From the NCBI RefSeq assembly GCF_029962835.1, contig NC_080574.1:28246001-28310000 (forward strand): a stretch of DNA of 64,000 nt, given 5' to 3'. Shown piece by piece: positions 4,386 to 57,149 of the stretch. The position numbers and the translations under genes were made by a program. The notes under the pieces were generated by a model. That model was not told the origin of the DNA. It ran no database searches and saw nothing but the letters and a program-made list of their open reading frames with translations. The DNA is from Magnolia sinica (Eukaryota; Streptophyta; Magnoliopsida; Magnoliales; Magnoliaceae). Within the stretch, counting starts at the first letter, position 1; every line of letters starts with the position of its first letter.

Positions 4386-4895
4386 TTGCGTCCTACCCCC
4401 GCCCGGATGTTAATCCGTCCGGGTAGGGCTCTGTGGAATCCACCATGATGTAATTATTTTTTTCATGCGGTTAAATGCTTTTATCAAATCATTTTAAGAT
4501 ATAAATAAAAAAATGAGGCAGGTCTAAGGCTTAAGTGGACTACAAAGTGGGGGCTGAACATACACCATTAATAACTTTGAGGGAGTTGGAGAAGTTTCAG
4601 ATCAAGCGAATATTTGTGTTTTCACTTCATCCACGTCTGCATGACCTTGTTATTAGGTTGGATGGTAAAAAAAAATCACGTTGGCCCTTATAAAGATTTC
4701 AATGGTGGGTGTCATCCTTTGGTGGGGTCCATTAGAGTTACGGATCTGCTTCATTTTTATGGTCATACTTTAAAATAATCCGAAAAAAGCGTTGAACAGC
4801 ATGGATATAATAATTACGGCAAGGTGGATCCCACACACCCTGCCCGGATGGATTAGCGTGCGGGCGGGGCTAGGACGCTATCAGCCTCCTGTACC
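4386..4895. mobile_element. GGCCCACC-type inverted-repeat DNA element (copy 1)
   Basis: The left end reads 'gattgcgtcctacccccgcc', followed by 'ggtagggctctgtgg' and 'ccaccatgatgta'. The right end carries the inverse: 'aaggtggatccc', 'cctgcccggatgg' and 'ggggctaggacgc'. The middle contains the family landmarks 'aagtggac' and 'cggatctgcttcattttta'. The element has no coding capacity, so it is a MITE or fold-back element. Its ends form GC-rich hairpins. The superfamily is unknown because no clear target duplication was seen. Confidence 0.6.
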
Positions 4896-5012
4896 TTGGG
4901 GGAGCGGATAAGGTGCAGCTAGCCATCCTGCCCAGACGGATTAGCGTGCGGGTGGGGGTAGGACGCAATCCGCGTCCTGTACCTCGGGGGAGCGGATAAG
5001 GTGCAGCTAGCC
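4839..5012 (+). repeat. Two tandem copies of an 88-bp element end
   Basis: The unit starting 'cctgcccggatgg' at 4839 is repeated at 4927 as 'cctgcccagacgg'. Both copies run through 'ggagcggataaggtgcagct'. The unit is the right terminus of the preceding inverted-repeat element plus a short flank, so the terminus itself has been duplicated in tandem. Confidence 0.75.
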
Positions 5013-34496: not shown

Positions 34497-36612
34497 TGCA
34501 AGATGATTGGAATTGGTTCGGTTCGCATCAAGATGTTTGACAGGGTGGAGCGTATTCTAATAGATGTGAGGCATGTGCCAAACTTGAAGAAGAATCTGAT
34601 CTCTCTACGAGCTCTAGATGGAATTGATTGTAAGTTTGTCGGTTATGATGGTGTCTCGAAGGTTTCAAAGGGGGCTCTTACAGTAATGAAAACACAACGG
34701 ATTGGTAATCAAATAATATATTTAGTGGAGCTGTAGCATCTGTAGTGGATTCCACGTCGGCACGTTTATGGCATGTGCAACTAGGCTACATGAGCGAACA
34801 GGGTATGAAGGTACTTCTATATCGTAGGTTAATTCCTAGTTTTAAAAGCTTTGATTTGAACGTATGTGAGCATTGCATATATGGGAAACAGTCGATGTTG
34901 CGTTTTAAAGGCAGGAAACATGTCAGTAAATGACAACTTGATTACGTGCATTCTGATGTGTAGGGGTTGTCGCTTGTTGTTTCTGGAGGACCGTCTTACT
35001 TTTATCGACAACTTCTCTAGGAATGTTTAGATTTATATTTTGAAACGTAAATCCGATGTGTTTGCCACTTTCAAGATATGAAGAGCGATAGTTGAAAAAC
35101 AGACAGGGCGAAAAGTGAAAGTTCTGAGAACAGATAATGGCGATGAATTTACTTCAGGAGAATTTGATCAATATTGTAAGAATGTGGGAATAGACAGGCA
35201 CAACATAGTGAGGCATACGCCAGAGCAGAATGATATGGTAGAACGTATGAACCAGACTTGGTTTCGGAGTATGCTGAGCAATTCTGAGTTGGACAGAGCT
35301 TTGGGTTGAAGCTGTTTCTACAACTTGTTATCTGGTGAATAAGTCTCTATCTACGGTTATTGATTGTAAAATTCATAAGTATGGAGTGGTCAGGTAGTTG
35401 ATTACTCGGATTTGAGATTTTTTTGTTGTGATGCTTATTCTCATATACCGTCTATTGAGAGTGATAAGCTAGACCAAAGAACAAAAAGTGCACCTTTATT
35501 TGCTATGGTGATGGGGCGAAATGTTAAAAGTTGTTAGACCATGGTTCATGGAAGATCATTATTAGCTGGAACGTCAAATTTGATGAGGGTTCCTTATTTC
35601 AGAAAGATGAGCAAAAGGAAACGGAAAATTCAGTTGTTGATGTGGAATTAGATAAGCATGAGACACTTGAGAAACCTAAGTCGCAGGTTGAGGTACAGGA
35701 AGAGGTGGAGCCGCCACTTGTCAGGAGAAATCCACCGAGGGATTACAGTTTGCCGTTGAGATATATGAATGACTCTAATGTTGCATTTGCTCTCATTACA
35801 GATGAGGGAGATCTATCTACTTTCCAGGAAGCTTTAGAAGATAAAGATGCAAAAAAGTGGATGGTAGTTATGCATGAAGAGATGAATTCTTTGTATAAAA
35901 AACAAACGTGAGATCTAGTTGAGTTGCTCATTGGGAGAAAAGAGATCGGGTACAAGTGGATATTTCGAAAGAAATTGGTTAGGTACAAGGCTAGATTAGT
36001 AACGAAGGGATATGTTCAAAATGAAGGTGTCGACTTCAATGAGATTTTCGCGCCAGTAGTAAAGCAAGTATCTATCAAATTTGTAGTAAAGAAGGATCTT
36101 GTTTGCAGGTTGAAGAGGTTGTGGAACGGCCTGAAACTGTCACCTAGGCAATGGTATAAGAAGTTTAATTCTTTCATGTTGAACTAGAGTTTTAGTAGAA
36201 GTGAATTTAATCATTGTGTTTATTTTAGAGCAATGAGTGGCAGGGAATTCATCATTCTAGTGTTACATGTTGATGACATGCTTATTGCCAACAATAACAT
36301 GTCTGAAATCAACATGTTGAAGGCTCAGTTATCTACAACGTCTGAAATGAAAGATTTGGGGGCTGCGAAGAGGATTCGTAGCATTCATATACATAGGAAC
36401 AGGGAGAGGAGTAGGCTATGGTTGTCTCAGGAGGAGTATCTTGAGAAGGTTCTAGTCAAGTTCGAATTGAAAAAGGCAAAACTAGTAGCACTCCCTACGC
36501 TACCTACTTTCGGCTTTCTTTAGAATGGTCCTGCATCAGATGAAGAAAAGCAATGTCTCGTGTGCCCTACTCGAGCGCAATTGGAAGTCTTATGTATGTC
36601 ATGGTCTGTACG
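34497..36612 (+). pseudogene. Copia pol remains: protease end, integrase, first part of reverse transcriptase
   Basis: In order: 34500-34740 (end of the protease linker region), 34745-34933 (GAG-pre-integrase with a CEHC zinc block), 35115-35309 (integrase core, LRTDNGDEF), 35531-35911 (linker), and 35924-36187 and 36233-36523 (reverse transcriptase, including a VDDM block near 36280). It is interrupted at 36612 by the Mutator-like element. It is a fossil with many breaks. Confidence 0.88.
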
Positions 36613-37439
36613 CAAGGTGTTCCGTAACAGTATCGGTGGGTGTAATGGTGCCCACTGTTACCGATACAGATACGCCTCGTATCGACTGATACGGGGTGTG
36701 TAACGGTGCAATTTTTTTTTGTCAAAAAACTATGGAAAATATTCATTAAATCCGGAATTTTCTAAATATTCTAAATATGCATTCATTTATAATTTGGAAC
36801 ATGTTTATGATGGTGTAACAGTCTACTCTTTAGTGAGAATGCTATATCGGGTTGTCTGATGGATTTATGAACCTGGCAACCTGGAATTAATTGCAAAGCT
36901 TTTATATTTAGTTTTCTAACTATATAATATCTATATAAATTGACTATAATGAATGTAATACCAAAACATCTTATATTTTCAAGTTTTCCTTTTATTTATA
37001 GTATTAGTGCATTGCATACTTCGTGACTCACGTGCATTTTATTTCAATATATAGAGTATGGAGGCTTTTGTATCCTATTATGTAATTCATACACCTAACA
37101 ATTTGATATCATTTTCCCTCATAAATCTTTAAAAAATTTAAAATTAAATTGAGGTAAATAGTGTTGTCGATTTGGGGCTGGTTTGGGGACCATTTGATAC
37201 CCCAAACTAGCCTCAAATTAATGCAATCTATTGGCACTTATCCCACTAATGGATTGGTGGACATTTATTAGACAGTGAAAAATGAAAAATATCAAATGGT
37301 CTTAATCCAAAAAAACAAGTGTCCGCAAACTAATTGTGAAAATTGTAGGAGTTATTTAATTTTGGGATTGTGACTTAGCAATAATGGTCCCAAAATTTAA
37401 TTGGTTAATGTTGAGTTAACATATACGTCATGTATAAAT

Positions 37440-38012
37440 TTTTAGGGCCATGTACTAGGGTCCACTTGATTATGTATTATATATCCATGTCATCCATCCG
37501 TTTTGGCCACTCATTTAAGGGCATTGTTTAAAAAAAAAAAAAAAAAGATAAATCCAGATCTTAGGTGGACCACTAGTGGGCCAGGCAAGCCACCTCGATG
37601 TATTTGTATATCAATGCCATCAATCTGTTTTGCTAACTCATTTTAAGGCATGGTCCAAAAATTCAGGTATATCTAAATCTTCGGTGGACCACTAGTGAGT
37701 ATCCCTTTAAAAGTGGGGCCCACCTCAATGCATTTGTTGTATATCCATATGGGCCATCCTTTTTGCCAACTTATTTTAGGGCTTAGTCCAAAAAATGAGG
37801 CTAATCCAAATCTTAGGTGAACCACAAAATAAGGATTTAACTCCCACCATTAAAATTTTCTTAAGACATTTTTTTTTTTGCATCAAGCTACTATTTGTGT
37901 TCTCCCTTCATCAAGGTCAAAGTCTATGCGACCTTATCAACAGGTTCGATGGAAAATAAACATTATAGTGGACGGCATGGATATACTACACATGAATCAA
38001 GGTGGGGCCCAT
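37440..38012. mobile_element. GGCCCACC-family pieces inside the Mutator-like element
   Basis: Three left-arm-like blocks follow one another: near 37455 ('ggtccacttgattatg', 'catgtcatccatccg'), near 37587 ('aagccacctcgatg') and near 37713 ('gtggggcccacctcaatgca'). A right arm ('ggacggcatggatatac', 'aaggtggggcccatg') lies near 37970-38012. The repeated left arms suggest either tandem growth of the end or several insertions. Confidence 0.5.
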
Positions 38013-38126
38013 GTAACAAAACAATGCAAGTGCACCATTGAGCGTGCACCGCAGAACATGTTAAAAAAGAAATTTGAAGTGCGTGGCCACACTGTCCATT
38101 CCTTTTTCCGATACCGAAATGAAAAA

Positions 38127-38127
38127 G

Positions 38128-38172
<45 letters not shown>

Positions 38173-38183
38173 AGAAGAAGAAG
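38127..38183. repeat. (GA)n / (GAA)n microsatellite
   Basis: GA repeats of about 40 bp pass into GAA repeats near the right end of the Mutator-like insertion. Confidence 0.9.
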
Positions 38184-38319
38184 GGCCGCACCCGTTACGG
38201 GCACCAAAAAGAGGGGGTGGCCGTTACGACCCCGTGACGCGTAACGATATCAACCGTTACCATTATGTATCGGCCATTACAGCCGAAACGTAACCGATTT
38301 TCAATACCCTGTCTATGCG

Positions 38320-39013
38320 AGACCAAATATTTCACATGCAGTTGGGTGTTGTGAGCATATACATGTCAAATCCCGGCAAGCAACATTGAGAAGCGGTGAA
38401 ATGGTTACTTCGGTATATATATGGTATGACGGACTTGTGCTTCAAAGATTTAGAGGAGAGACTCAAAAGCTATATTGATTCGGATTATGCAGGGAATGTG
38501 GACAATAAAAGGTCTACTTTCGGTTACTCATTTATGCTACCACGTAGAACTATTAGTTGGATGTCTAAGCTTCAATATGGGGTTGCACTTTCCACTACCA
38601 AAGTTGAATAAATGGCGGTGACGGAGGCATTCAAGGAAGCTATTTGGTTGAAAATGGATGATGAATGAGTTGAGGCTTTAGTAGAAAGTCGTGCCTATGC
38701 ATTGTGATAGCGAAAGCGCAATTAATTTGGCGAAGAACTCAATATATCATTCCCAAACTAAGCACATTGATGTTTGTCATCACTTTATCTAGCAGATGCT
38801 AGAAGGATATATTACTCTTGAGAAGATTCACACCAGTGAGAATCCGACGGACCTACTTATGAAGGTCGTTCCTATAGAGAAGTTCAAGTTTTGCTCGACT
38901 TCTCTAGGCTTGGCAAGAAAGGCAAAAAGACAGAGTGTGCATGAAGCGATGATGATAATGCTTAGAAGAAGATTGGCAAGGCAAGGAAGTGATTTTACTA
39001 TCAAGGTAGAGAT
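38320..39013 (+). pseudogene. Copia RNase H remains and 3' tail
   Basis: 38396-38630 carries the RNase H pattern (DSDYAGNVDNKRSTFGY, then a block ending STTKVE). The remainder runs to a purine-rich 'caaggtagagat' directly before the 3' LTR, the expected polypurine tract. It is a fossil with several breaks. Confidence 0.85.
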
Positions 39014-39447
39014 TGTTAAAATTGTGGCACCAAAATCACTATGGGTATTCACTTTTATGAGCCCGTACAACCCATGTTTCACATGCTAATAAGGCCCAAG
39101 TGTTAGTGGACTCTTGGAGGGGTATTTTTGACATTTCCCTCTTGAAATGGTGGCTTTTAAGGTAAGTTATGTTAGGGTTAAGAGAGAGTTACGATTTTTT
39201 TGTTGTTTTTTGGCATTTTAAGAGCCTCCAAGGGGAGAGAACTATGGTTTTTTTGCTGTAAGTTCTCTCCATCCTTATAATCTCCTCCAAATAGTAGATT
39301 GATCGTCGCTTTGTGTCGTGGTTTTTTTCCCGCAGCGGTTTTCCACGTAAAAATCGTGGGTTCTCTATGTAGTTGCTTGGATTTTTCGTTTTCTCCTGTT
39401 CGTTTCAATCCAAATTAAGGTGCTTCTCCAGGGCCGGTTCTCCAACA
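39014..39447 (+). repeat. 3' LTR of the copia element
   Basis: 434 bp, starting TGTTAAAATT and ending CCAACA, directly before the CTACT duplication at 39448-39452. It pairs with 22824-23258. Confidence 0.92.
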
Positions 39448-41504: not shown

Positions 41505-42385
41505 CTAGAATTTTGCCCAAGAATTTCCAATTGGAGAAGATGCACTGGTGCCATTCCCATTTGGGATTGATTTTACAGCCACAGCTTCTAGGGATGTGCA
41601 TGGTCCTGCAGCTGCAGATTTCAATGTAACAATATGCACACGTAGGAAGGTGATGGGTTCCAAAATTAAGTTAGACAAGAAATAAGGAAAAAATCATAAT
41701 CACGCGTACATTCAAATCTTGCCCAGTTGTCCAGTGAAGATGATACAGTGACATTCTCTTTTGGGGCTTCCGAAGAAAGCAAGTCGATGAGATCAACAGT
41801 TAAATCAACGTTTGGTATAGGAGTTTTCAATACGGACTCCATTGTCTGTGGTGGATGCCCTGGGGGCAAGAGATTTGGCACCTTCATATCTGAGGAACCC
41901 TGTAAAGGCATGAATCATTTCAGGTAATTGCTTCTAAAAAATCTTTCGAGTTTCAGGTTTCTTATGAGGCATTGAGAGAAATTATTTCCATGATTCAGGG
42001 ACTACTATGACGATTCATGCAATTTTAATTTACCTTTTTGGTGCATGTATTAAATCAAATACACCAACTTAACCTCTTCATCCTTCTGATTATCCATTTT
42101 ATCATTCATAATGTTTGTTTTGGTTTGATAGTCTGCATGACCATATGACGTTTGTTTTTATTTTAGCCAGAATTTGCATAAAATGGTCATGGTTGACATG
42201 ATATATATTGACATAGGTGTTCATATGCTTGTTTTTGTAACAAACAAAAGGATTAAGGTATTTAAATGCTCTTTTTTTTTTTTAAACTAACTGAAGGATT
42301 AAGGTGTTTATACGCTTGGTGTTAAATGGCTACATTGCGCTAATTTTGAGGGCCTATGAGAAGAAGAAAGATGGAAGAGAGAAAC

Positions 42386-42477
<92 letters not shown>

Positions 42478-45400
42478 CGTGTGTGTGTGTGTGTGTGTGA
42501 GATGCTTAGGGTCTTATTACATGGACTTGGGCAACTATCAACCTTTCAACACTCCCCCTCAAGTTAGAGCATCCTAATGAGGCCTAGCTTCGAACAAGGG
42601 CTAACATAATCAAACCTAAGAAAGAAAGAAATTCTTCTTCAATACTTAGAAAGGTATTGCAGTTATGGGGTGCGCACCAGTTGTACCAGTACCACCATAA
42701 GCTTGCAATGATACTGGACAAATGTGGGGCCCACGTGATGTATGAAGGCCATCTAACCATCCACCAGATGCATTAACACATATTACCCCCAGGTGGCAAA
42801 AATAATTGATCAAACATTCAAGCGGGCCATAACACAGAGAATAATGTGAGAGGGGACGCCCACCCTTGATATACAGAAGGGTCCATCTGAATTTCAAAAC
42901 AGCTTGATTTTCAATCTAATCCTTCATCCAGACCACATGAAGAATATGAATGAACTGGAGTTCATATACACAACACAGTGATACCTCCACCCAAAACAAG
43001 GGTGGATATTACCCTTTAACATGCTCCATGTGGTGTGGCCCACTTGATTCAAAGATCAAACTGATTTTTGGGCCTTAGGGCTAACATGCGCTGATGCATA
43101 TGATGGACAGGTTAGATTTTATGCATGCATCATGTGGGCTCCGCATATGCCCAGTACCACTATAGCTTAGAGTGTACCAGAACACCATTGGAGCACACCC
43201 CTTCAGTTGTAAGGTAGGTTGTATTGGATCAGGTAATGGAACTCAAGTCGTTTGATGCAAAATTGTTGTAGAAATACTTTTAAAATAGTAAGAATGCCCA
43301 AAGAGTTTTCTTCTTCCTCAGCATATATGACCATGGAATCCAAACAAAACTAATTAATGATAATCATAATCATAAAAGAGCAGGAAGAGTAACACAAACG
43401 TATGTATGTATGAAAGTGATAAAACTAACCAATGCCCAGTAAGTAATCACTAAAACCATCACATTTACCTGATGAAATTTTGAGTCAGTTCTTGCATTGG
43501 TCACTTGTGGCATGGACATAGTAGGAATCTCTGCCTCAAGAGAGGATTTCCTTGAATGGTTATTAGAATGCCCATTACTGTGCCTACCAGGAATGTCTGC
43601 CTCATGAGAGGATTTCCTTGAATGGTTATTAGAATGCCCATTACTGCGCCTACCAGGAATTTCTGCCTCAAGAGAGGATTTCTTTGAGTGGTTAGAATGC
43701 CCATTACCACCCCAAGCAGGAAGGATTGCCTCAAGAGAGAATTTCCTTGCGTGGTTAGAATGCCCAGTACTGAGCCTACCAAGAATGTCTGCCTCAAGAG
43801 AGGATTTCCTCGAGTGCTTAGAATGCCCAGTACTGCGCCTACCAGGAACGTCTACCTCAAGAGAGGATTTCCTTGAGTGGTTAGAATGCCTAGGAATGTC
43901 TGCCTCAAGAGAGGATTTCCTTGAGTGGTTAGAATGCCCTGACCCTGACTCGTCATTGGAGCTCCACTCTTCTCCTAATTTATGGGGTGACTGCGCTGCT
44001 TTCTTTGGGACCCATCTTTTCTCCTCATACCTGAAAAATATGGTGAGGATGAATATAGCATGGAATATAAAGTTTCCGGCCTTCCATAACTAGTTACAGA
44101 GCCATAAATGAAAGTTTATTGCATCGAGCCCCAGGACATTAGCATTCAGGATCTATAATCTGGATAGGCTAGATAGGGATAACACAAGAGCTTTGTTAAG
44201 TGCACACGTGTGTGCAATGAAGCTTATGTACACACCACACATGTCAGCATGGCGCAATAGATCCGAGGTCCAATCCATCCATGAGAAAGGCACCACTATA
44301 TTGATTTCCCAGCCCAAGAATCAGGTTGATCCACTGCTCAGGTGGGCCACATTTTGCAAAACAGATGTATGGCTATAAAAATTAAAAAAAAACTTGGCTA
44401 GAGTTTTCTAACCCATCCTGTTTCCAGTATGGGACCGACATGCTGAGTGGACCGGATTTATTTTTGGAAAATATGTAGAAGGTTGGACCAACCTTATGGA
44501 TGGATCAAATCTCGCACCACTGCCTGTACATGAGCTCTATGCACACACCTGAGTGCTTAGCAATGCTCGTCTGTGTCTGTTGCAGCAAGCAACATTTAAT
44601 AAATTGAGAATGAAAGTGCAAGATCCTTTCGAGAACATACTTTGCACGGATGAAGCATTCAGTCCCAACTATTTCAGAATTTGGCAGTAGTTCTGCTTCC
44701 CAATAGCTGTTGGACTTCACATTACCCATGGCTACACAGAAGGTGCACAGCTTAAAATTTGATTGCGCCAAGCTAGGAAAGACAGCTTTCTCAAAGTGGA
44801 ATAGAAGCAAATAACATTTTGATTAGTAAAATTCAAGAAAAGAATCAGATGTATTCTTACATTGCATCAAGGCAACCTGCTCTGGCAACCATGTATCTAA
44901 TGTAGCAGACCGGACCTGCATGGTATATTAAGATTGTAATCTATTATTCAAGAAACAGACTATGAAACGGGACAAAAACAGAAAGCAACCACATGAGCGT
45001 TCTTGACTTTCTTGCCATTGAAAAAAAAACTGTCGCTAAAAAATATCATGAATTTCAGTATTTGCAAATTGCCAAAAGACGAATGATGCTCAAATGATAC
45101 ACAAGTTGAAAACGGTTGGCAATAGGTAGACCTCTTTTGGAAACCCTCAAGGGAAAGAGTATACATCAATGGAGGAACATCAAGACTTCCAATGTTTGCA
45201 GTGGCTAGAGAAATGTCAAGATCCAGGGCTAGATAATGGAGATAGATCCACATATTCAGGTGTCCTAGAAAAACTGGGATCCTATTGATCATGTAGTCCT
45301 CCATGAGCCATACCTCCTCTCCTTACAGCTAGCAGTTCAGTAGACCGAATCAATACAGAACCCAGATGACTAATATGCAAGCAAGCACAACCAATGGATT

Positions 45401-48342
45401 TGTCGCCATTGTGAATTAATTATTTCATAGCCCACAAAGCTATAATGAAGGATCTGACGTTTCCAGATCAGATAAAGTCAACACCCTTGGAAATTCTTTT
45501 TGGCAGATAATAAGAAGACCGATCAGAGTAGAAAGAAATAATCTGACTTGTATTGAAAATAATCAATAACAGGCACTGCTTGAACTTTTTAAGGTTCTAC
45601 ACCCATTATATTTCCACACTGGGAATGACTATCCCATTCGTTGATAGTGTAGTGTTGAAAGAACTTAAAGAAGGAGAACATGAGCTAAAGAGTTTATACC
45701 TTGGATATATGCACTCCAAGACTGCGATGTATACCAGAACATTGCATGCAAATAAAGATCCCTAGGTTCACGCTTGCCCATCGTGGGGCCCTGCAGTAAA
45801 GATTTTTATTATTATTTATTTTTAAAGAGAATCAAAAGAGGGGTAATTCCACAGTAATTGACTTGAAACTCCATAGCGATGAAAAGAAACATGAGAAAAC
45901 TGCAGGGGGTGCCAATACAAAATCCCAAAGCTATATGCAGTTGCAGGGACAATCGTTTCAAACATTAGCTTCAAAAAATAATATACGCAGACAAAATACC
46001 CATCTCGTGAAGACTATTAAAACTTCAAAACAGATAAGTTCTTGTTCTATTTTTATCACACCTTTAAGATGAGAAGAAAATAGAGAAATTGGAGAAAATC
46101 ACAAGAACTCTCTAGAACCAAATACTTATTTTATTTTTAAATCTAATCCTAAGGATCAGCCTTCAATGTAAGAAAGAAAAGAAAAAAAGAAAAAAAAAAT
46201 AAAAAATCCAATCGTAACGGTCAGCCTTCAATGTAAAAATTTCCAGCAGTCACGGTGCGTTTGGTTTCACCAAATATCAAGAAATTTCATGATATTTTGC
46301 ACCAAGCTAATTAATCATGAAATTTCATGATCTTTGGTGCAACCAAATGCACTCTAAACCTGCATGTAGAATCAAGATATTTATAACCTTTACAAATCTA
46401 TTCTTGAATCAGACAGGGGTAACACAAATAGTCACCATTCGATCGCTAATCAAACAGATACTGGCATGATTTGTCCATATAAAATACAATACTCGTGGGA
46501 AAAAAAATGTTTCAAAACATGAAATAACAGCTAATATTGAAATTTGCTTTAACCATCCAAACAGGAATGTCAACTGATTTACATACTTGTTACTACAATC
46601 AGCACACACCCTATTTTCTGGCAACCTCATAAGACCCTCCAATATCTGCACACAACAACATTTCAAACCATGAGAGATTATCTGGACTGCCAAACTACAC
46701 TTACCCAGAAATGAAAAAAAAATAAAAAGCTGCAACTAAGCTAAAATGAGGACCAAAGAGAGCTTAACAATCAGAGCTAGTGAAAAGGTGAGGTAAATGC
46801 ATGAAAAGCAGAAATTTTAAAGCTATGTTGTACAGAGTACAAGCATTCTAAAACAGCAGACATGCATTTATACAAGATTTAAGGTACAACCAGCTCAGTC
46901 AGACCTGTCCATTGTATGTTCTAGTAATTCATACAAGCCAAAGTGGTGAACTAATCTGAGCCACTAAATCAACTCTTCCATTTCTGATTCAGTAATCGGG
47001 ACAGGACAACAATCTGTTGATTATATAATCAAAGAAGCTGTGTTTGTTTATAAAGCAGACTCTGGGGGTAGTTCTGCTGAAGCAATCCAACGGATGTTAC
47101 TAGCACAATGAAGAAATCAAATTCAATAAGTGCAGAAATGGAGCTTTGGAATTAAAATTGCAAAATGCAAGCCAACATTGAGAGATCTAGAAACTCATCA
47201 TAGTAGGATGTTGAATCCTACTCTTGCTACTGTGTCCGAGATCCACTCTGTTCATCAGGTGGGCCCCACCATTTATGTGCCATTGCCCAAAAACCAGGCC
47301 AGTCCAGCCATCAGGTGGGTGACATGTGTACATTGGATGTGGACCACTGTCATTTTCTCCAACCCTCCTATTTTTCGTTCCTACATATTGGACCCGATCT
47401 GGACTTTTCATCAGATGGGCCCCACCATTTATGGTGCAAAAACCAGGCTGGTCCACTCAGGTGGGTGACATCTATATATTGGATGTTGACCGCAGTCGTT
47501 TTCTCTAACCTTCTAATTTTTCTTTCCTACAGATTGGACCCGATCTGGACTGTTCATCAGGTAGGCCCCACTGTTTATGTGCTATGGCGCAGAAACCAGG
47601 CCGGTCCATTCATCAGGCGGATGACATGTGTACATCGCAGTGGAACACGGTCATTTCCTCCAACCTTCCTATTTTCATCCGTACACATTGAACCCAATCC
47701 AGGCTGTTCATCAGGTGGACCCCACCATTAATGTGCCATGACCCAAAAACCAGGCCAATCCAGTCATCAGGTGGCTAACACATGTACATAGGATGCGGAC
47801 CACGCTCATTTCACTAACCTTCCATGTTTCTTTCCGTACAAGGTGTACCACCCACCTGATGACTTTTGGGCCATGGCAAAGGCATACTGGGGCCCACCTG
47901 ATGAACAACCAGGATCTTGTAACAAGTTCCACATTGTAAAATCGAAACAGAGAAAACAGAGTTTCAAATTCTAAATGCACCCCATCTATCCATTTCATCC
48001 ATTAAAGAATTCATAAATACTATATAACCCAACAATTAGCTGAAAATATCCAATCTGCCATTGCCAAACACTAGAAATCTTCAAAACTCCTAACAACGCG
48101 AAAAATTCAGTAATTCGGGTTTTCATTGGAAGGTTAGAGAAAAATTCAGTTTTACCAATTCACCAATATCGGAATTTTCATTGGAAAAAGGTCATGAGTG
48201 GCAAATAAATTACGAAAATACCAAAACGATGGAAAAGGTGGTGGGAAGGGATGGGTAAATGAAGGAGAAATGAGGGGTAGAAAATAAGGACCTTGGTGTG
48301 TTTGGCATTGAGCTCTTTGGTGACGTGCGCCTTCTCGTTCAT
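41505..48342 (-). CDS. AGD15-like: ArfGAP domain protein, AGD5/AGD15 type, eight coding exons
   Basis: It activates GTP hydrolysis by ARF GTPases in membrane trafficking (family knowledge). Coding exons on the minus strand, with GT-AG borders and matching phases, are 48342-48292, 46645-46587, 45790-45700, 44915-44861, 44731-44641, 44030-43469, 41899-41710 and 41611-41505 (TAG). They total 1206 bases, about 401 residues. It opens [17 protein letters not shown], the usual start of this subfamily. The zinc finger is C31-X2-C34-X16-C51-X2-C54 and the arginine finger is R59. The ArfGAP domain ends near residue 122 (YEEKRW). Seven repeats of about 21 residues ([15 protein letters not shown]) fill exon 6. 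Exon 7 has a conserved DLIDLL...NWARF block. The TAG replaces an expected glutamine codon after NSWAKF, so the tail may be shortened. It is longer than Arabidopsis AGD15 and shorter than AGD5 (lengths from memory). Homology is very secure. The orthologue choice is less so. Confidence 0.93.
42389..42499. repeat. Compound (GT)n-(GA)n-(GT)n microsatellite in ArfGAP intron 6
   Basis: About 42 bp of GT, then about 44 bp of GA, then about 25 bp of GT. It is long, nearly pure and almost certainly length-variable between individuals. Confidence 0.95.
42667..43201. mobile_element. Inverted-repeat MITE in ArfGAP intron 6
   Basis: The ends are inverse to each other over about 50 bp: 'ggggtgcgcaccagttg' on the left, and the inverse of the right end reads 'ggggtgtgctccaatgg'. 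Inner blocks 'gtggggcccacgtgatgta' and 'tgcatcatgtgggctcc' pair too. The flanks 'tgcagttat' and 'ttcagttgt' may be an aged 8-9 bp target duplication. It is 535 bp and non-coding. Confidence 0.7.
43523..43939 (-). repeat. In-frame coding minisatellite, seven units, in ArfGAP exon 6
   Basis: Seven units of 51-66 bases encode versions of [20 protein letters not shown]. Codons for SRKSSLEA are almost unchanged between units, so the array has spread recently. Each unit has a basic residue pair before serines (RKSS), a common kinase target pattern. Every unit keeps the reading frame. Units 6 and 7 share an extra asparagine. Confidence 0.9.
44197..44559. mobile_element. Inverted-repeat MITE in ArfGAP intron 5
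   Basis: 'taagtgcacacgtgtgtgca' at the left is matched by the inverse of the right end, 'taagcactcaggtgtgtgca'. The match continues through 'agcttatgtaca' / 'agctcatgtaca', about 35 bp in all. It is 363 bp and non-coding. It lies wholly within the intron between exons 5 and 6. Confidence 0.65.
46253..46355. mobile_element. Small inverted-repeat MITE in ArfGAP intron 2
   Basis: About 100 bp forming one hairpin: 'ggtgcgtttggtttcacc' and 'agaaatttcatgatat' on the left pair with 'atcatgaaatttcatgatc' and 'ggtgcaaccaaatgcact' on the right. The 'gcgtttggt' end is typical of short Tourist or hAT-type MITEs. The target duplication is not clear. Confidence 0.6.
47239..47915. mobile_element. Compound MITE of four tandem units with an inverted end, in ArfGAP intron 1
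   Basis: Four direct copies of a unit of about 150 bp begin at 47249, 47405, 47551 and 47705, each with 'gttcatcaggtgggcccc' or a close variant. Each runs through 'aaaaaccaggc', 'catcaggtgggtgacatg' and 'ttggaccc'. After the last copy, 47845-47912 holds the first half of the unit in reverse ('ccacccacctgatgac', 'ggcccacctgatgaac'). The whole therefore has terminal inverted repeats of about 70 bp around a tandem array. No coding. A related single copy lies near 57241-57480. Confidence 0.75.
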
Positions 48343-57077: not shown

Positions 57078-57149
57078 GTCGTTGTAGTATAGTGGTGAGT
57101 ATTCCCGCCTGTCACGCGGGTGACCCGGGTTCGATCCCCGGCAACGGCG
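57078..57149 (+). tRNA. tRNA-Asp (anticodon GTC)
   Basis: A 72-base cloverleaf. Acceptor arms GTCGTTG (57078-57084) and CAACGGC (57142-57148) pair with one G-T, and G at 57149 is the discriminator base. The anticodon GTC is at 57111-57113, which is position 34-36, in a stem 'cccgc/gcggg'. The T arm is 'ccgggttcgatccccgg', with the B box. The A box is near 57085-57096. No intron and no encoded CCA, as expected in a nuclear gene. A T-run at 57151-57157 acts as the pol III terminator. It looks fully functional. Confidence 0.97.

What the first reader, a model, noticed from the sequence alone, without database searches (positions are those of the whole stretch)
43523..43939. Recently expanded in-frame RKSS repeat domain in an ArfGAP
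Exon 6 of the AGD15-like gene has seven near-identical units of about 21 residues ([15 protein letters not shown]). Units differ by few codon changes, every one keeps the frame, and the frame is fixed by splice phase on both sides. I know of no such repeat in Arabidopsis AGD5 or AGD15, so this may be a lineage-specific tail with multiple phosphorylation or adaptor-binding sites. Copy number probably varies.
Basis: partly seen in the sequence, partly recalled or inferred. Interest (0 to 1): 0.72.

Follow-up and report, generated by a model that had tools for sequence, protein, structure and literature searches.

The report
Seven-unit coding repeat in magnolia ArfGAP
A magnolia gene for a vesicle-traffic protein carries a seven-copy repeat of about 21 residues in a probably floppy linker that its sister gene lacks; the repeat is real and read in frame, but most likely an ordinary lengthening with no proven function.

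Summary
On the minus strand, exon 6 (44030-43469) of an intact eight-exon ArfGAP gene carries seven in-frame units (48, 63, 63, 63, 63, 66 and 51 nt). Splice phase fixes the frame on both sides. The assembly is almost certainly Magnolia sinica: its contig C1 equals that paper's longest scaffold. The same genome holds an AGD5 paralogue with identical exon 2-5 lengths, whose exon 6 has 214 nt, not 562, and no array. The ArfGAP domain is strongly conserved between the two (91 of 107 residues).

The units show no comparable constraint. Of 25 differences from consensus, 22 lie in replacement codons, and unit 4 holds 10 of the 25. A weak excess of conservation in the unit's core does not clearly survive leaving unit 4 out. 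'Recent' is only partly right, because units are 76-96% identical. Copy-number variation and the AGD15 label are untested.

Best reading: a coding minisatellite that grew in a tolerant linker and offers up to seven basophilic Ser sites. A multisite phospho-switch is possible but unproven. Modest interest.

The parts
48292..48342 (-). exon 1 of the ArfGAP gene (start codon at 48342)
   Evidence: splice borders and open frame
46587..46645 (-). exon 2 (59 nt)
   Evidence: same length as exon 2 of the AGD5 paralogue
45700..45790 (-). exon 3 (91 nt), second half of the zinc finger and the Arg after it
44861..44915 (-). exon 4 (55 nt)
44641..44731 (-). exon 5 (91 nt), last but one part of the ArfGAP domain
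43469..44030 (-). exon 6 (562 nt; 214 nt in the AGD5 paralogue), end of the ArfGAP domain and linker with the repeat array
43889..43936 (-). repeat unit 1 (48 nt, short linker)
43826..43888 (-). repeat unit 2 (63 nt)
43763..43825 (-). repeat unit 3 (63 nt)
43700..43762 (-). repeat unit 4 (63 nt, eroded; 10 of 25 changes)
   Evidence: counted by hand from the table
43637..43699 (-). repeat unit 5 (63 nt, KKSS)
43571..43636 (-). repeat unit 6 (66 nt, extra Asn codon)
43520..43570 (-). repeat unit 7 (51 nt, extra Asn codon, linker cut)
41710..41899 (-). exon 7 ([12 protein letters not shown] segment, related to AGD5 VDYATDLFNMLS)
41505..41611 (-). exon 8 with stop codon; the AGD5 Gln-rich tail was not found downstream

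Best explanation
It is a coding minisatellite in the linker of an apparently working ArfGAP of the AGD5 family. After the gene split from AGD5, a segment of about 16-21 residues in exon 6 was copied in tandem, in steps of 48, 63 and 66 nt, by unequal exchange or slippage (timing and mechanism inferred). Only copies in multiples of three survived, because exons 7 and 8 lie downstream in frame (inferred). The array makes a long, Ser/His-rich, net-basic and probably disordered tether between the catalytic ArfGAP domain and the C-terminal segment. The units drift with little constraint on single residues. Each still offers an Arg/Lys-Lys-x-Ser site, so a basophilic kinase may phosphorylate several (inferred). 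The default is that the array mainly adds length and is tolerated rather than selected.
For: Intact eight-exon frame, splice phases fixed. ArfGAP domain over the Pfam cut-off, 138.6 against 28.7 bits, with CX2CX16CX2CX4R present. Against the AGD5 paralogue, 91 of 107 domain residues are identical and dN is 0.09, while dS was returned as -1, which I read as saturation: the protein is selected. Exon 2-5 lengths are the same in both genes (59, 91, 55, 91), exon 6 is 562 against 214 nt. Between units, 22 of 25 differences from consensus are in replacement codons and mean pN/pS is 1.43; a neutral simulation gives 17.1 of 23 replacements on average, 21 seen, P 0.04 for so many. The array lies on the disordered side of the charge-hydropathy line. 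Perfect tracts of 41 nt (66-nt offset) and 34 nt (48-nt offset) fit tandem duplication. The search for the array in the 1.84-Gb assembly found only this place (E up to 0.001, 10 candidates scored).
Against: Codons 1-12 of the unit carry fewer changes than expected (7 against 13.2, P 0.008) and RKSSLE 3 against 7.0 (P 0.048), which hints at selection on the core. With unit 4 left out the core effect has P 0.12. All seven units keep [RK]K.S. The excess of replacements (P 0.04) could also mean positive selection. No expression or protein data were available, and no AlphaFold model could be obtained.
Confidence: 0.6

Rival explanations
1. Multisite phospho-switch: the seven R/K-K-x-S sites are substrates of a basophilic kinase (CDPK, SnRK or AGC type; kinase logic recalled). 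Phosphorylation turns the net-basic tether acidic, and so graded kinase activity tunes membrane or adaptor contact of the ArfGAP.
For: [RK]K.S kept in 7 of 7 units and net charge +9 over 139 residues. The core is less variable than the linker. Arabidopsis AGD5 is phosphorylated at T206 in peptide MESAATPVER, 17.2-fold up at 5 min and 16.4-fold at 15 min after cellotriose against water in wild-type roots (PMC9563578, passages); exon 7 here has MESVLKTP (correspondence by eye). Tobacco AGD5 is among the chilling-responsive phosphoproteins (PMC11170286, passage). A maize ArfGAP of another type (with C2 domain) is phosphorylated by KNR6 (PMC8533723, passages).
Against: The published AGD5 site is followed by Pro and lies outside the repeat. 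Core constraint is weak without unit 4 (P 0.12). Replacements dominate between units. RKSS-like matches in seven copies follow automatically once one exists.
Confidence: 0.22
2. Adaptor-binding or multivalent scaffold: the repeated LEADIP-type acidic-hydrophobic piece is a short linear motif repeated for avidity to a coat or adaptor protein.
For: Repetition gives avidity by itself; [DE][IL]P occurs four times in the array. ArfGAP tails commonly bind coats (recalled).
Against: The ADIP part lies in the more variable half of the unit (A to V, D to E or I, I to V or L, P to L). Pfam finds nothing in exon 6 and no solved chain matches it at E up to 1. No motif library was searched.
Confidence: 0.1
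3. Not translated as drawn: exon 6 is skipped or alternatively spliced, or the copy number is an assembly artefact.
For: No RNA data were available here. The gene model rests on sequence and homology.
Against: Exon 6 carries the conserved YEEKRWVP end of the domain, shared with AGD5, and its splice phases match exons 5 and 7. The units are mutually distinct, and long reads were used for the assembly (PMC10999834, passages).
Confidence: 0.05

Closest known systems
   Same: 91 of 107 aligned domain residues; exon 2-5 lengths; splice phases of exon 6; related exon 7 (local score 86 against a mean of 27 for shuffles); similar first bases of exon 8
   Different: Exon 6 is 214 nt without array; AGD5 goes on into a Gln-rich tail that was not found here
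SMAP1-type ArfGAP (PDB 2crr, 2iqj)
   Same: Best solved relatives of the ArfGAP domain, E 6e-35 and 8e-32
   Different: The match ends near the end of the domain (query residue 127 or 125); no solved chain matches exon 6
Coding minisatellites / protein tandem repeats in disordered linkers (general class, recalled; review PMC4585158 seen in listing and start of abstract only)
   Same: Tandem, in-frame, low-complexity, within one exon, with unit drift
   Different: Host protein. The paper searches on AGD5, AGD15 and ARF-GAP did not ask for repeats by name, so they do not show that none is in print

Membership tests
ArfGAP domain proteins (PF01412) | Pfam ArfGap match over the curated cut-off | tested here: met
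   138.6 bits against cut-off 28.7, residues 17-124
ArfGAP domain proteins (PF01412) | CX2CX16CX2CX4R zinc finger with the Arg after it (pattern recalled) | tested here: met
   CADC...CMQCSGIHR from residue 31
ArfGAP domain proteins (PF01412) | GAP activity on Arf | not testable with these tools
   needs an enzyme assay
AGD5 family of plant ArfGAPs | Domain sequence and exon structure shared with AGD5 | tested here: met
   91 of 107 residues; exons 2-5 of 59, 91, 55, 91 nt in both; exon 1 of the paralogue not located
AGD5 family of plant ArfGAPs | Gln-rich C-terminal tail of AGD5 | tested here: not met
AGD15 orthologue | Closer to AtAGD15 than to AtAGD5 in a tree | not tested
Multisite phosphorylation scaffold | Sites phosphorylated and conserved across species | not testable with these tools
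   no phosphoproteome or orthologues; between units the site pattern is kept in 7 of 7

The most novel reading that the evidence does not exclude
A magnolia lineage turned a short linker of an Arf-regulating enzyme into a tunable phospho-rheostat: seven basophilic sites whose number changes by unequal exchange and whose charge state sets how long Arf-GTP persists at the trans-Golgi network.
Probability: 0.08. Interest if true: 0.5.

Novelty: new variant of a known kind. Interest (0 to 1): 0.22.

Why it matters
If the units are functional it would be a natural copy-number series of a regulatory linker in a membrane-traffic enzyme, with a repeat-free paralogue in the same genome as control. If not, it is a clear small example of coding-minisatellite growth tolerated in a linker while the neighbouring catalytic domain stays conserved.

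Tried and rejected
Unit derived from a single copy still seen in AGD5: the collapsed one-unit exon 6 can be aligned end to end with AGD5 exon 6 (forced global alignment), but the unit alone does not score above its shuffles (score 22, mean 20.1, P 0.31; the seven individual units gave P 0.15-0.70). So homology of the unit to AGD5 is positional at most.

Purifying selection on the unit: pN/pS 1.43 in the coding frame, with lower values in all five other frames (0.63, 0.64, 0.81, 1.24 and 1.33). No frame-specific constraint was seen.

Relatives of the array elsewhere: none in viral contigs (8 pattern matches, none confirmed), prokaryote genomes (33 pattern matches, none confirmed), plasmids or solved structures. 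These are not collections of plant genomes, so the result says nothing about other plants.

Histidine-rich pH or metal sensing: considered (16 His in 139 residues) and set aside, because an ArfGAP acts on the cytosolic face (recalled). Not tested.

Full report
What is there. The minus strand of 48342-41505 carries an intact eight-exon gene. All seven introns have GT..AG borders and the joined frame is 401 residues plus stop. Residues 17-124 match the Pfam ArfGap family at 138.6 bits, the zinc finger pattern with its following Arg is present, and the best solved relatives are SMAP-type ArfGAPs. Exon 6 (44030-43469) begins with the end of the domain (YEEKRWVP) and then holds seven repeat units from 43936 to 43520, with lengths 48, 63, 63, 63, 63, 66 and 51 nt. 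Tandem Repeats Finder reports the same array.

Where it comes from. The assembly has 1,838,573,281 bases in 127 contigs, and its contig C1 is 141,926,363 bases long. The Magnolia sinica paper (PMC10999834, passages seen) gives 1,839,595,854 bp, 130 scaffolds and a longest scaffold of exactly 141,926,363 bp. The window is therefore almost certainly from Magnolia sinica, in a lightly edited deposit of that assembly (inference).

The paralogue as control. A search of the genome with the ArfGap family gave 22 matches, exon pieces counted one by one and the window gene among them (a lower bound, as the tool says). By tblastn of the window protein on these loci, a multi-exon locus on C1 is the nearest relative with all of exons 2-5. 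Exons 2-8 were placed there with borders that fit, and exons 2-5 have the lengths of the window gene (59, 91, 55, 91 nt). Its exon 6 is 214 nt against 562. Its exon 1 was not located; only about 1 kb upstream of exon 2 was fetched, and the start pattern looked for was not in it. Over exons 2-5 and the start of exon 6, 91 of 107 residues are identical, dN is 0.09 and dS was returned as -1, which I read as saturation. The two genes are thus old duplicates whose catalytic domain is strongly conserved. Exon 7 is also related (local score 86; shuffles mean 27, none of 2000 as high). The window gene stops in exon 8, and no AGD5-like tail was found downstream. Exons 7-8 as a query find this gene plus a weak match (E 0.26) at the AGD5 locus (E up to 1). 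The search for the array found this one place (E up to 0.001).

How the units have evolved. Pairwise identity is 76-96%. Of 25 base differences from consensus, 3 are synonymous and 22 lie in replacement codons. Unit 4 carries 10 of the 25 (counted by hand from the table). Units 6 and 7 share an inserted Asn codon and a silent CAC-to-CAT change; units 2 and 3 share a Thr. These shared marks and the perfect tracts of 41 nt at 66-nt offset and 34 nt at 48-nt offset fit stepwise tandem duplication. After counting the two shared changes once each, 21 of 23 are replacements, against 17.1 expected from random mutation of the consensus (P 0.04 for 21 or more). No stop is expected in 68% of simulations. 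So the open frame within the array and its residue changes give no sign of residue-level constraint; a slight excess of replacements leaves room for positive selection. The one hint of constraint is that codons 1-12 (the [11 protein letters not shown] part) carry 7 changes against 13.2 expected (P 0.008), and RKSSLE 3 against 7.0 (P 0.048). This split was chosen after seeing the data, ignores the tree of the units, and weakens to P 0.12 for codons 1-12 without unit 4 (RKSSLE alone was not retested).

What it probably does. The array is 22% Ser (30 of 139) and 12% His (16 of 139), with net charge +9, and falls on the disordered side of the charge-hydropathy line, unlike the ArfGAP domain and the C-terminal segment, which both fall on the folded side. 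A structure prediction could not be obtained. The most likely reading is a tolerated lengthening of a flexible tether. A phospho-switch is the main rival: AGD5 of Arabidopsis is phosphorylated at T206 (MESAATPVER), 17.2-fold up at 5 min and 16.4-fold at 15 min after cellotriose against water in wild-type roots (PMC9563578, passages), and exon 7 here has MESVLKTP (correspondence by eye). That site is followed by Pro and lies outside the repeat, so it supports 'this part of the protein can be phosphorylated', not 'RKSS is'. AGD5 acts as an ArfGAP at the trans-Golgi network (PMC4140167, passages); carrying this over to the window gene is inference.

What could not be tested. No plant sequences beyond this genome were searchable, so lineage specificity is shown only against the AGD5 paralogue, not against other species. 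Copy-number variation needs reads. AGD15 orthology needs a tree; in the library searched, 3 papers hold 'AGD15' together with 'Arabidopsis', each once.

Verdict. Its claims of recency, variability and functional phosphorylation go beyond the evidence.

Noticed in passing
L026-L030 (C1:22.82 Mb, C3:7.45 Mb, C3:21.43 Mb, C1:79.37 Mb, C13:81.96 Mb): Five dispersed copies of a piece of the AGD5 gene (up to about 1.5 kb with exons 2-3; one copy only 0.6 kb with exon 3; 88-95% identical to the gene). All five end at the same AGD5 base, three of five start at the same base, and several pairs of copies share further flank beyond the AGD5 piece: looks like a gene fragment captured once by a mobile element and multiplied (element not identified).
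   Followed up: partly
47240-47840: 154-bp tandem array of 3.9 copies in intron 1 of the same gene.
   Followed up: no
42388-42475: Adjacent perfect TG and GA microsatellites in intron 6, possible markers for typing the locus.
   Followed up: no
35912-39089: Fragments on the + strand that read like a decayed Ty1/copia polymerase (by eye, family name recalled).
   Followed up: no
43501-43851: A second frame of the array is open for 116 codons on the same strand; a repeat whose period is a multiple of three keeps any stop-free frame open.
   Followed up: partly
4839-5012: Two-copy 88-bp tandem repeat, G+C-rich.
   Followed up: no
57078-57149: tRNA-Asp (gtc) gene on the + strand.
   Followed up: no
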